Origin: an uncultured Nitrospiraceae bacterium
GTDB taxonomy: Bacteria; Nitrospirota; Thermodesulfovibrionia; Thermodesulfovibrionales; Dissulfurispiraceae
Direction of reading: 5' to 3'
Length of the DNA stretch: 64,000 nt
Assembly (NCBI GenBank): GCA_903822005.1
Contig: CAIJNL010000011.1
Coordinates: 1 to 64,000 of the forward strand
Shown here: positions 8,698-22,091 of the stretch, one piece after another
How positions within the stretch are numbered: position 1 is the first letter of the stretch
Layout of the letters: each line of letters opens with the position of its first letter
Position numbers and translations under genes: made by a program
Notes under the pieces: generated by a model
Databases searched by the model: none
Seen by the model: the letters and a program-made list of their open reading frames with translations, nothing else
What the model was told of the DNA's origin: nothing

Positions 8698-8890
8698 CTA
8701 ACTCCCCCCGGCTTCCTGGGATGAAGATCATAACGCCCCCTTAACCCCGTCGGATAAAGGTAGTAACTCCCCCTAGCCCCCTCTTAAATTAAGAGGGGGA
8801 AGAGCGGAGCGAGGGGGCGTTAATCAGAGGGGGAAAGGCGAAGCCTGGGGGAGTTACTATCTATCTTCAAGGGGGATGGGGGGAGTTGCC
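8698..8890. repeat. Nested GC-rich inverted repeats (AACTCCCCC type)
   Basis: The gap between acsE and cooC holds two nested inverted repeats. The inner one, 8763-8857, begins GTAACTCCCCCTAG and ends CTGGGGGAGTTAC. A further pair CCCCCTCTTAA/TTAAGAGGGGG lies inside it. The outer one begins at ~8698 with TAACTCCCCCCGG and closes at 8871-8890 with a GGGGGATGGGGGGAGTT-type arm. This looks like a small non-coding mobile repeat (MITE-like) and could fold in RNA between two co-oriented genes. No ORF of note is inside. Confidence 0.7.
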
Positions 8891-9660: not shown

Positions 9661-9723
9661 TGAGTCCTCCGTAAATACTGCCAGACTAAAACAACTGCAT
9701 CCGGCGCACTAGTTTTCTTTCCA

Positions 9724-9868
9724 GACGGCAAGGGTGCCGGATCGAAAGCGCGGTGTCCGCCTTTGGGTCTCCCAATCTGATCAATATATTCTGCGTTCTT
9801 TGATTACTGCGCTTACCATGGATACCAACAATGATTCAGCGCGCCGAGATACGGACACACTTGTCGTC
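9724..9868. repeat. Long-hairpin repeat, copy A
   Basis: A 145-nt imperfect palindrome between gph and cooC. The left arm starts GACGGCAAGGGTGCCGGATCG and the complement of the right arm starts GACGACAAGTGTGTCCGTATC; pairing continues through GCGCG. The middle contains GGTGTCCGCC, TTGGGTCTCC, ATATTCTGCG and GATACCAACAAT, nearly all shared with copy B. Four members are in this window. Confidence 0.8.
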
Positions 9869-9888
9869 AGAATACTCGCTTACACAAT

Positions 9889-10539
9889 TTATTCTGCAAG
9901 CCTCTTTATTATCGGCAGAATATCAGGAAATTTGTCGACCATAAAATGGGCATGTTTCAGCTCATGGATCGGCCTGTAACCATATGTCACAGCGATGGTC
10001 TTTATGCCTGCGGCCAACCCCGCATCGATATCATAATTGCTGTCGCCGACTATGACCGCCTCAGAAGGCTTGATGCCATATTTGGCAAGCACTAACTGGA
10101 TAGGCACCGGGGAAGGTTTCTTGTCAGGGGCCGTGTCGCTGCCCGAAACATAATCAAAATATTTAGCTATGCCCAGCGCCTGCAGCACGCGGACCGACAT
10201 CATCTCCCTCTTGTTCGAGACAATTACTTTCTTATACCCTTCAAGGGCCTTAAGCGTCTCTTCAACACCGGGATATAGAGGTGTATTGTCAACCAGATGG
10301 GCCTCGTAATATTCACTGAAGCGGCTGACGATCGGCGCCGGGTCAGCCTGCACATTCTCGGCGGCCATCAGCTTGTCAAAGAGCTTCGAAATGCCTTCAC
10401 CCACAAGGGTGATAGTGCGCTCAACACTGACAGGCTTGATGCCCGTGCCCTCTATCGCGTAATTGATCGCTTTGCAAATGTCCATGCTCGAATTTATAAG
10501 GGTGCCGTCAAGATCGAAGATTACCATTTTTATTTTCAT
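9889..10539 (-). CDS. gph: HAD-family phosphatase (phosphoglycolate phosphatase-like)
   Basis: A soluble haloacid dehalogenase-superfamily phosphatase of 216 residues. Motif I is FDLDGTLINS (nucleophile Asp near residue 9), motif II is VIVSNK, motif III is the Lys in KKPSPVP, and motif IV is VGDSNYDIDAG. The four-helix cap between motifs I and II is the type found in Gph, PpaX and related enzymes. Phosphoglycolate is the likeliest substrate, but pyrophosphate or other small phosphates are possible. It is flanked on both sides by the long-hairpin repeats, so operon membership with cooC is doubtful. Confidence 0.8.
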   Translation of the reverse strand: MKIKMVIFDLDGTLINSSMDICKAINYAIEGTGIKPVSVERTITLVGEGISKLFDKLMAAENVQADPAPIVSRFSEYYEAHLVDNTPLYPGVEETLKALEGYKKVIVSNKREMMSVRVLQALGIAKYFDYVSGSDTAPDKKPSPVPIQLVLAKYGIKPSEAVIVGDSNYDIDAGLAAGIKTIAVTYGYRPIHELKHAHFMVDKFPDILPIIKRLAE

Positions 10540-10600
10540 GGGATATATTAATTGATCTTAAGGCGAAACCTCAACGCCTCGCATTTTACCTGGATGTGCC

Positions 10601-10741
10601 GTCAATGGTGATCGGATCGACAGCGCGGTGTCCGCCGTTGGGTCTCCCGCATAGATACATATATTCTGCGTTATTTCAGAACCGGCATTGATTGTTGATA
10701 CCGACAATAATTCAGCGCGCCGAGATCCGGTTGCCATTGAC
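10601..10741. repeat. Long-hairpin repeat, copy B
   Basis: A 141-nt imperfect palindrome. The left arm is GTCAATGGTGATCGGATCG, then CAGCGCGGTG; the complement of the right arm is GTCAATGGCAACCGGATCTC, then GGCGCGCTG. The inner part closely matches copy A, while the outermost ten bases are unrelated to copy A yet still pair with each other. It lies between gph and the polA 5'-nuclease gene, next to copy D. Confidence 0.8.
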
Positions 10742-10774
10742 GACGCCAAGATGAATTCAAATTTTAATACTTGT

Positions 10775-10924
10775 AGACCGGCAAGGGCACCCGCCTCTTG
10801 TCTCGCTGAATAAGCTCATTTCACACTAATAACCGCATTACCTAAAAGGCGCACAATCCTGTTGAATGATCAGAATCGCAAGGAAGGTCACACCGAGACA
10901 TCGAGTCGGGTACCCTTACCGTCT
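10775..10924. repeat. Long-hairpin repeat, copy D
   Basis: A 150-nt imperfect palindrome. Left arm AGACCGGCAAGGGCACCCG then CTCTTGTCTCG; complement of right arm AGACGGTAAGGGTACCCG then ACTCGATGTCTCG. Judged by the inner segment, it is inverted relative to copy C. It ends about 15 nt before the likely -35 box of polA. Confidence 0.75.
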
Positions 10925-10974: not shown

Positions 10975-11895
10975 ATGAACTTATACCTCATCGACGGCCA
11001 TTCGTACTTCTACCGGGCCTTCCATGCCATCAAAAACCTGAGCAATTCCAAAGGCTTCCCGACAAACGCGATCTTCGGATTCACCAATATGCTCTTTAAA
11101 ATGATCCGCGACAAGAAGCCTGATGCGGTTGCCATAGTGCTAGATTCGCCTGTTCCTACCGGCAGGCACAAGCTTTATGATCAGTACAAGGCGCAGAGAC
11201 CAGAGATGCCGTCGGATCTTGTGCTCCAGATGCCCGAGATAAAAAAAGTAATAGAAGCCTTCAACATTCCCTCAATCGAAATGCCTGGTTTTGAGGCCGA
11301 TGACATCATCTGCACAATGGCCAAAAAAGCCGCCGCCCAGGGTGTCAATGTCTTCATCCTCACCGGCGACAAGGACATGATGCAAGCGGTCGAAAACAAC
11401 GTAACGATCTACGACCCGATGAAAGAAGTCATTATCGACAGGGCCGCTGTTATCGAAAGATTCGGGGTGCCGCCCGAACGGGTCGCAGAGATTATGGCGC
11501 TCACCGGCGATGCTGTCGACAATATTCCGGGAGTAAAAGGGATCGGGGAAAAGACCGCCAAAGAACTGCTTTCCGATGTAAGCCTCGACGATCTGCTTGA
11601 ACATCCTGACAGGATAAAGAACGAACGCATAAGAAAAATGATAGCCGAAGACATGGATATCATCAGGCTGAGCAAGACACTCGCTACAATCAATTTCGAT
11701 CTGCCGGTCGATGCGGACATGAAGGCGCTTGCCTCGCGGGCCCCTGACTGGCCTGCCCTGCTGAATATATTTTCGGAATTCGAATTCACAAGCCTGATTA
11801 AAATGATGCCCTCGGATGCCCACAAGCAGCGCGCCGATTACTTTACAGTCAGCAGCAGGGAAAGCCTCGAAAAGTTTCTGGGGTTGAAGGCATGA
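10975..11895 (+). CDS. polA: DNA polymerase I, 5'-3' exonuclease part (split polA)
   Basis: Removes RNA primers and flaps in DNA replication and repair. About 306 residues from ATG 10975 (a TTG start at 10930 is possible but lacks support). Metal-binding motifs are intact: LIDGHSYFYRA, FEADDIICTMA, LTGDKDMMQ, and the helix-hairpin-helix GDAVDNIPGVKGIGEKTA. The last ~20 residues (DYFTVSSRESLEKFLGL) resemble the beginning of the polymerase I 3'-5' exonuclease domain, so the break is inside that domain rather than between domains. The stop codon overlaps the next gene (ATGA). A genuine gene fission or a single-base error could explain it. Confidence 0.9.
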   Translation: MNLYLIDGHSYFYRAFHAIKNLSNSKGFPTNAIFGFTNMLFKMIRDKKPDAVAIVLDSPVPTGRHKLYDQYKAQRPEMPSDLVLQMPEIKKVIEAFNIPSIEMPGFEADDIICTMAKKAAAQGVNVFILTGDKDMMQAVENNVTIYDPMKEVIIDRAAVIERFGVPPERVAEIMALTGDAVDNIPGVKGIGEKTAKELLSDVSLDDLLEHPDRIKNERIRKMIAEDMDIIRLSKTLATINFDLPVDADMKALASRAPDWPALLNIFSEFEFTSLIKMMPSDAHKQRADYFTVSSRESLEKFLGLKA

Positions 11896-13697
11896 AACAG
11901 AGATCGCTATTTGATGAAGTCGATACCGCGCCCTCTCCGTCGCCTGAAGGAAGACCGGCGGACAAAATCGAAAACGCCCGGCCTATACGGGAGCTCGCCT
12001 ATGACATAGAATCAACAGGCAAGAATCCGGTTTCGAATATAGCTGTCGGTATCTCGTTCTGCAAAGAAAAAGGTGCTGCCTGCTATGTGCCTGTACGCCA
12101 TACGGCAGGACCGAATATTCCCGACGCATTTACTGTTGTGAAGCCGGTGCTTGAAGACGGGGGCATCGCGAAGATTGGCCATAACCTGAAGTATGACATC
12201 CTGATCCTGCGCAAAGAAGGGATCCATGTGGCAGGAAAACTTTATGACACCATGCTCGCCTCATACCTGCTGAACCCCAACAGGACAGAGCACAGCCTCG
12301 AATCTGTCGGCCTGGAATACCTGCATCACAAAAAGAGGGCATTCACGGAAGTGCTCGGAAAGAGAGAGACCTTTGCGGATGTGCCGGTGGATGAGGCCAC
12401 GCCTTATGCCGCGGAAGATGCCGCACTCGCCTGGGAGTTAAGGGGTATGCTCTTTGACATGCTTGAGGCCGAGGGGCTCGCGACGCTCTATTCCGACATC
12501 GAGATGCCTCTCATCTATGTGCTGGCTGATATTGAGCAGAACGGCATCAAGGTGGATACAAAAAGGCTTGAAGAGCTTTCAAAAGAACTTGAGCTGGAAC
12601 TCGATGCGCTCCAGTCAAAAATCTACAGCCTTGCGGGAGAGGAATTCAACATCAACTCGCCGAAGCAGCTCGGCAGGATTCTGTTTGATGTGCTGAAGCT
12701 GAAACCGGGAAAGAAGACGAAAACAGGTTTTTCGACGAACGTGGATGTCCTGGAGGAACTTGCCAAGAGCCATGACCTGCCAGCCGAGATCCTGAACTAC
12801 AGGACCTATTACAAACTCAAAACTACCTACGTTGACGCCCTGCCCAAACTTATCAACGAGCAGACGGGCAGGATACATACATCCTTCAATCAGACAGTTA
12901 CCGCCACCGGCAGGCTCAGCAGCAGCGATCCGAACATGCAGAACATCCCTGTGCGCGGTGAATGGGGCACAAAGATACGTGAGGTATTTATTGCAGAGAA
13001 AGGCAACGTCCTTGTTTCAGCCGACTATTCCCAGATAGAGCTGCGGATACTCGCCCACCTCTGCGGGGATGAAGGCCTGATAGCGGCCTTCCGCAACAAC
13101 ATCGATATTCACACGAGGACCGCCTCGGAGATATTCGGAGTGCCTGTTGAGGAAGTGGACATAGAACAACGGCGGGTTGCCAAGACGGTAAATTTTGGCG
13201 TCATCTACGGCATGAGCGCCTTCGGTCTCTCAGAGGCGCTGGGCATACCTGCCAAAGAGGCCTCCGCTATAATAGACCACTATTTTGCGCGCCACAGGGG
13301 AGTGCAGGATTACATGGAGTCCACCCTTGAGACCGCCCGTGCTGACGGGTATGTAAAGACCCTTCTCGGCAGAAAACGGCCCATTCCCGAGATCCACAGC
13401 CCGAACAACAACATCAGGATGCAGGCAGAGCGGATGGCCATCAACTCACCAGTGCAGGGGTCAGCTGCTGACCTGATAAAGATCGCCATGATAAGAATAT
13501 GGAAACGGCTGAAGGATAGCACGCTGAAGACCAGGATGATACTGCAGATACATGACGAACTGCTCTTTGAAGTGCCTGAAGCGGAGCTTGATATAATTTC
13601 CAAAATGATACGGGAAGAGATGGAAGGCGCGCTTACCCTTTCAGTGCCGCTGCATGTAGAAGTGGGCCATGGACGCAACTGGTCCGAGGCCCACTGA
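11892..13697 (+). CDS. polA: DNA polymerase I, proofreading and polymerase part (Klenow-like)
   Basis: A family A DNA polymerase of 601 residues lacking the 5' nuclease, which is encoded by the overlapping upstream gene. Proofreading residues are present: YDIESTG (Exo I), GHNLKYDIL (Exo II), YAAEDAAL (Exo III). Polymerase motifs are present: A, SADYSQIELRIL; B, RRVAKTVNFGVIYG; C, QIHDELLFEV. The first residues MKQRSLFDEV contain QRSLF, resembling the QLSLF-type peptide that binds the beta sliding clamp; a Pro/Ser-rich linker follows to about residue 25. The two parts together (~907 residues) equal a normal Pol I. Translational coupling is likely. Confidence 0.95.
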   Translation: MKQRSLFDEVDTAPSPSPEGRPADKIENARPIRELAYDIESTGKNPVSNIAVGISFCKEKGAACYVPVRHTAGPNIPDAFTVVKPVLEDGGIAKIGHNLKYDILILRKEGIHVAGKLYDTMLASYLLNPNRTEHSLESVGLEYLHHKKRAFTEVLGKRETFADVPVDEATPYAAEDAALAWELRGMLFDMLEAEGLATLYSDIEMPLIYVLADIEQNGIKVDTKRLEELSKELELELDALQSKIYSLAGEEFNINSPKQLGRILFDVLKLKPGKKTKTGFSTNVDVLEELAKSHDLPAEILNYRTYYKLKTTYVDALPKLINEQTGRIHTSFNQTVTATGRLSSSDPNMQNIPVRGEWGTKIREVFIAEKGNVLVSADYSQIELRILAHLCGDEGLIAAFRNNIDIHTRTASEIFGVPVEEVDIEQRRVAKTVNFGVIYGMSAFGLSEALGIPAKEASAIIDHYFARHRGVQDYMESTLETARADGYVKTLLGRKRPIPEIHSPNNNIRMQAERMAINSPVQGSAADLIKIAMIRIWKRLKDSTLKTRMILQIHDELLFEVPEAELDIISKMIREEMEGALTLSVPLHVEVGHGRNWSEAH

Positions 13698-21748: not shown

Positions 21749-21908
21749 ATAACAACCTCCGATCATAGAAATGATGAATGAAGACTTTATCAGATACTGC
21801 GAATTCTTTTCAAGATGCCGATATACAGAAAATGTTGTTTTTGGTCTGTCGAGAGTAACCATCCCTCGGCGGCCGGTTAGCCACCCGTGATGCATCGATT
21901 GGAGAGGA

Positions 21909-22052
21909 CCGACAAGGGGAGCCGGATCGCTGTCTCGCCGCGTCCTTTCTTCAGATCATCGGCAGCACAAACATTATGCGCTATATTTATAATGCGGCAG
22001 TTCAGTCAAACTTCCCTAATTTGGCGAGACAAGATACGGTTACACTTGTCGG
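21909..22052. repeat. Long-hairpin repeat, copy C
   Basis: A 144-nt imperfect palindrome in the ppnP/ATP-cone gene gap. Left arm CCGACAAGGGGAGCCGGATCG then CTGTCTCGCC; complement of right arm CCGACAAGTGTAACCGTATC then TTGTCTCGCC. It shares the outer CGACAAGGG and CCGGATCG with copy A, but its inner stem (TGTCTCG) is that of copy D. It fills most of this otherwise gene-free 378-bp stretch. Confidence 0.8.
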
Positions 22053-22091
22053 GCACACAGAAAATATTAATTTTCTCGCCGCCAGCCCTGC

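What the first reader, a model, noticed from the sequence alone, without database searches (positions are those of the whole stretch)
9724..10924. A family of ~145-nt long-hairpin elements whose arms keep pairing while their sequence differs
Three copies (A 9724-9868, B 10601-10741, D 10775-10924) surround gph, and a fourth (C 21909-22052) is 11 kb away. All are 141-150 nt. Each forms one long imperfect hairpin with ~30-bp arms. A and B share the inner stem GCGCG and the middle (GTGTCCGCC, TTGGGTCTCC, ATATTCTGCG, GATACC-ACAAT) but have different outer stems, both paired. C and D share a TGTCTCG inner stem instead, with C sharing the outer CGACAAGGG with A. This is the pattern of compensatory change. 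It suggests selection for a folded RNA or a hairpin DNA substrate, or a set of MITE subfamilies driven by an unseen transposase.
Basis: seen in the sequence. Interest (0 to 1): 0.75.

Follow-up and report, generated by a model that had tools for sequence, protein, structure and literature searches.

The report
Long paired-hairpin repeats, REP-doublet-like
The four hairpins belong to a family of about 77 roughly 145-letter palindromic repeats scattered between the genes of this one bacterial species; their two arms change together to stay paired and one particular DNA strand is the one kept foldable, so they behave like unusually large versions of the small mobile REP repeats of other bacteria, not like a conserved RNA gene.

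Summary
The four hairpins are where stated, and the own genome (3.23 Mb) holds about 77 units in three related subfamilies: D (48, including window D and C), A (16, including window A and B) and E (13, none in the window). Arms covary far beyond shuffled and slid controls in D, and beyond shuffles in A and E. The non-Watson-Crick pairs left are G-U rather than A-C on one fixed strand (62 versus 16 inferred events, p about 1.5e-7). So a single-stranded hairpin of defined polarity (RNA or ssDNA) has probably been selected. Copies are intergenic with no fixed gene orientation, lack target-site duplications, bracket no longer element, and are absent from the other 175 genomes of the order searched. 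Units occur as inverted heterotypic doublets: D next to A or E in 26 of 26 cases, spacer mostly 20-40 nt, sometimes D-X-D triplets. That is REPIN/BIME architecture, but with units about four times longer, no GTAG or CGTC tag and no adjacent RAYT gene. Best reading: a lineage-specific, non-autonomous palindromic repeat spread as a folded single strand by an unidentified enzyme; template switching may contribute to the compensatory changes. A new variant of a known kind; mechanism inferred.

The parts
9723..9869 (+). Subfamily A hairpin (copy 'A'), 19 nt beyond the stop of gph
   Evidence: CM R1 hit 60 bits; homologous to B and about 14 other genomic copies; fold
10600..10742 (+). Subfamily A hairpin (copy 'B'), partner of D in an inverted heterotypic doublet
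   Evidence: 78% identical to A; fold z -4.4
10743..10775 (.). 33-nt spacer of the B-D doublet
   Evidence: sequence; spacers mostly 20-40 nt genome-wide
10776..10924 (-). Subfamily D hairpin (copy 'D'); folded polarity on the minus strand, about 53 nt upstream of the likely start (10978) of the 5'-3' exonuclease ORF of split polA
   Evidence: CM R1 156 bits; fold z -5.6 on the minus strand
21907..22054 (+). D-like hairpin (copy 'C'), divergent member, between a Ppnp-family gene and a gene with a weak Mrr_cat match
   Evidence: CM R1 104 bits; neighbours

Best explanation
A lineage-specific, non-autonomous palindromic interspersed repeat that works like REP doublets (REPINs)/BIMEs but with units of about 145 nt. 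Shown: about 77 units, three subfamilies, intergenic, outer stems that vary yet stay paired, a fixed strand polarity of the allowed wobble pairs, inverted heterotypic D-A or D-E doublets with a short spacer, and no target-site duplication. Inferred: the doublet (about 325 nt) is or was the unit that spread; one strand folded into the hairpins was the substrate of an enzyme supplied in trans (not identified); copies that lose pairing or the near-invariant core stop spreading, which keeps structure and core conserved while loops and outer stems drift. Singlets and chimeras are then decayed or recombined doublets. Some block-wise compensatory change was probably helped by template switching between arms.
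For: About 77 units on 20 contigs. Strong covariation. Wobble asymmetry, tree-based events WC->GU against WC->AC: D 44:10, A 12:4, E 6:2, pooled p about 1.5e-7; raw D cells 61:12 without the outer three pairs. All 26 adjacent pairs join D to A or E, never two alike; 22 have the 5' outer ends facing, 4 the 3' ends, with triplets D-X-D. Repeat similarity stops at the units. Intergenic, no gene-orientation rule. No TSD: mean longest flank repeat 3.5 against 3.55 shuffled (mostly singlets), 3.62 against 3.47 (doublets). Absent from 175 other genomes of the order, the one same-genus genome included. At an orthologous intergenic region the same-genus genome has no hairpins. REPINs are described with inverted doublets, ssDNA or mRNA hairpins and common compensatory changes (PMC3116915); REP dimers with 20-100 bp spacers and heterodimers (PMC3733652).
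Against: No enzyme found: three Y1_Tnp matches in the genome lie on contigs C21, C26 and C42, none next to a unit. No REP tag and far longer units. No near-identical copies among those compared, so no sign of recent movement. No clean empty site: the nearest genome is only about 70% identical. The wobble test cannot separate RNA from ssDNA, and parsimony events on a tree of short paralogues are approximate. Heterotypic doublets could also be inherited from one ancestral doublet by segmental duplication without the doublet being a moving unit.
Confidence: 0.6

Rival explanations
1. A multi-copy structured RNA (regulatory or processing element) selected in the host for its RNA fold.
For: Covariation, G-U over A-C on one strand, near-invariant core in the 35 D copies.
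Against: No match in the order, no consistent orientation to genes, folded strands of doublet partners are opposite, no conserved promoter or U-tract seen by eye at unit edges, no Rfam match.
Confidence: 0.17
2. Ordinary MITE subfamilies of a DDE insertion sequence: short inverted-repeat elements moved by a transposase that recognises the double-stranded ends.
For: Size, terminal inverted repeats, intergenic location, multiple copies.
Against: No target-site duplication; no longer element bracketed by these ends in a nearly complete genome; outermost base pairs are the most variable instead of conserved; strand-specific wobble is not expected of double-stranded recognition.
Confidence: 0.12
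3. The compensatory changes are purely mutational: arms of any long quasipalindrome are homogenised by template switching during replication, with no selection on structure.
For: Neighbouring double changes within single copies, e.g. the outer stem of L070; the mechanism is documented (PMC8794818).
Against: With copies in both orientations it predicts no strand asymmetry of residual mismatches, yet GU exceeds AC 62:16 in events; it does not explain multiplication or the conserved core.
Confidence: 0.08
4. attC-like recombination sites of an integron relative.
For: Imperfect hairpins with variable outer sequence, strand polarity and similar size (from general knowledge of attC sites).
Against: Copies are scattered singly or in doublets among ordinary genes, not in cassette arrays; no attC-type end boxes seen in the alignment.
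Confidence: 0.02

Closest known systems
REPINs / REP doublets / BIMEs (RAYT-associated REPs)
   Same: Intergenic, lineage-specific, inverted doublets with short spacer, mosaic arrays, hairpins with compensatory changes between arms
   Different: Units about 145 nt instead of 20-40; no GTAG or CGTC tag; no RAYT beside any copy; all doublets seen are heterotypic
ERIC (about 127 bp), YPAL (about 168 bp) and Rickettsia palindromic elements (about 150 bp)
   Same: Long palindromic unit of similar size, tens to hundreds of copies, foldable
   Different: Not known to me to occur as regular heterotypic inverted doublets; RPEs often sit in genes, these do not; no direct sequence comparison was made with them
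IS-derived MITEs
   Same: Short, inverted-repeat ends, intergenic, multi-copy
   Different: No target-site duplication, no parental insertion sequence found, variable outer ends

Membership tests
REP/REPIN | High-copy intergenic palindrome, mostly in inverted doublets or mosaic arrays | tested here: met
   77 units, 26 adjacent inverted pairs, triplets
REP/REPIN | 20-40 bp unit with GTAG or CGTC end tag | tested here: not met
   145-nt units; outermost bases variable; definition from PMC3733652
REP/REPIN | Linked RAYT (Y1_Tnp) gene | tested here: not met
   Three Y1_Tnp matches on C21, C26, C42; none adjacent to a unit. CGTC-type REPs lack this link too (PMC3733652)
REP/REPIN | Moves as an ssDNA hairpin intermediate | not testable with these tools
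   Only the strand polarity of wobble pairs agrees
MITE of a DDE insertion sequence | Target-site duplication | tested here: not met
   Flank repeats equal shuffled flanks
MITE of a DDE insertion sequence | Autonomous element with the same ends | tested here: not met
   No element longer than the units repeats around 36 fetched regions; arm searches genome-wide find D arms only at hairpin spacing or as solitary relics. Tested for the D ends only
Conserved structured RNA | Conservation across species or an Rfam family | tested here: not met
   0 of 175 other genomes of the order with the D model; no Rfam match
Conserved structured RNA | Covariation of paired positions | tested here: met
attC site | Arrays of gene cassettes | tested here: not met
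   Scattered sites between ordinary genes
attC site | Integron integrase in the genome | not tested
   no search was made

The most novel reading that the evidence does not exclude
A selfish repeat of a kind not yet described, whose heterotypic pair of large hairpins is recognised as a folded strand of fixed polarity (RNA or ssDNA) by an enzyme unrelated to RAYTs, with pairing of the outer stem required but its sequence free.
Probability: 0.2. Interest if true: 0.7.

Novelty: new variant of a known kind. Interest (0 to 1): 0.42.

Why it matters
How palindromic repeats spread in bacteria without a linked transposase is an open question. Here about 77 diverged copies in one genome give unusually clear covariation and a strand-polarity signal, plus a strict pairing rule between different subfamilies. 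That makes testable whether the moving unit is the doublet, which strand folds, and how compensatory change in repeats divides between selection and template switching.

Tried and rejected
Rfam at gathering and relaxed thresholds: nothing relevant. Search for a linked Y1 transposase: none adjacent. Target-site duplications: none. A larger repeated element around copies: none. D arms bracketing a longer element: none. Exact-pattern scan of GTDB r220 genomes: one hit in a haloarchaeon, taken as chance; viral contigs: none. Plasmids and phages by blastn: none. Similar multi-copy hairpin families in relatives G001 and G002: only unrelated hairpins in the stretches taken. A single RNA holding both hairpins of a doublet: rejected, since wobble polarity puts their folded strands on opposite strands. 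The first wobble count for E used a wrong register in its outer stem and was redone with the 4x3 internal loop.

Full report
Observation. The four hairpins are present at the stated places. Their folds are better than dinucleotide shuffles, most clearly D on the minus strand (z -5.6) and B (z -4.4), least for A (z -2.1). A and B are 84% identical over a 64-nt middle stretch, with different paired outer stems.

Family size. BLAST in the own genome (3,231,892 bases, 48 contigs, 100% complete) with A, C and D found many more copies, and the flanks of D revealed a third type, E. A covariance model of 35 D copies searched against the genome, merged with the BLAST hits, gives about 77 distinct units on 20 contigs: 48 D-like, 16 A-like, 13 E-like, partial ones included (the subtype of weak hits is approximate). 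All three share a layout: an outer stem of variable sequence, an asymmetric internal loop (GGATCGA opposite CGAGATNCGG in A and E; ACTCGATG opposite CAAGAGGCGG in D), an inner stem, and a loop of about 85 nt with conserved blocks. In the 35 D copies the segment TTCAGCGAGACAAG is invariant or nearly so.

Covariation and polarity. For D, 57 cells have both sides changed against 22.5 in shuffles, and slid partners drop pairing from 90% to 32-51%. A gives 26 such cells against 8.7 and E 14 against 3.9 (own shuffle script). Residual non-Watson-Crick pairs are biased: on the strand starting with the GGATCGA or ACTCGATG arm they are G-U rather than A-C. On a FastTree with parsimony the events are 44:10 (D), 12:4 (A, p 0.08 alone) and 6:2 (E, p 0.29 alone); pooled p about 1.5e-7. 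Both C-to-T and A-to-G steps contribute, so a one-type mutation bias does not explain it. The fold of one strand has therefore probably been selected, as RNA or ssDNA. Relatedness of the copies and the structure being derived from them are the caveats.

Arrangement. Merging places shows 20 close pairs; six more appear once the partial A hits are completed from sequence. All 26 join D to A or E. In 22 the 5' outer ends face each other across a spacer of mostly 20-40 nt; in 4, including the window's B-D pair, the 3' ends do. D-X-D triplets occur at C1:35.2k and C16:95.7k, and a D-E pair with a further D remnant at C2:160k. A chimera of a D arm and an A arm lies at C15:21.4k. Similarity between regions ends at the units. 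Copies are intergenic; the only overlaps are with short ORFs that lie largely inside the elements. D sits in tandem (19), divergent (9) and convergent (7) contexts by a simple longest-ORF rule. Flanks show no target-site duplication.

Distribution. None of 39 relatives and none of 175 other genomes of the order (stricter filters) matches the D model, including the only same-genus genome. An exact pattern found one probably chance hit in GTDB r220 and none in viral contigs. At an orthologous intergenic region on C14 the same-genus genome has a small ORF and no hairpin, but at about 70% identity no clean empty site can be drawn.

Interpretation. Architecture, copy behaviour and compensatory change match what is described for REPINs and REP dimers (PMC3116915, PMC3733652), while unit length, missing tag and missing linked RAYT do not. 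I therefore say it works like a REPIN/BIME system and do not file it as one. The enzyme and the moving unit are inferred. Template switching (PMC8794818) can produce block compensatory changes, as in the outer stem of L070, and probably contributes, but does not predict the strand asymmetry. An RNA function in the host is not excluded.

Limits.

Noticed in passing
window 10978-13697: DNA polymerase I is encoded as two overlapping ORFs: a separate 5'-3' exonuclease and a 3'-5' exonuclease/polymerase ORF that starts 4 bases before the other's end. A relative (G002) looks split too, another (G005) has one long frame of 919 aa.
   Followed up: partly
window 8700-8887: C-rich/G-rich inverted and direct repeats (AACTCCCCC...GGGGGAGTT), a different palindromic repeat next to the CODH/ACS genes.
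   Followed up: no
L137 (G002), upstream of polA: A large near-perfect GC-rich hairpin (arms about 30 bp) between genes just upstream of polA in a different genus, unrelated in sequence to the family.
   Followed up: no
G000:C45, about 85530-85600: A short E-like hairpin whose stem extends into perfectly complementary AT-rich flanks (ATATTAAATTGTCTGCG...CGCAGACAATTTAATAT), suggesting arm copying or insertion into a palindrome.
   Followed up: no
G000:C15:21406-21494: Chimeric short hairpin joining a D arm to an A arm, a likely recombination or deletion product of a doublet.
   Followed up: partly
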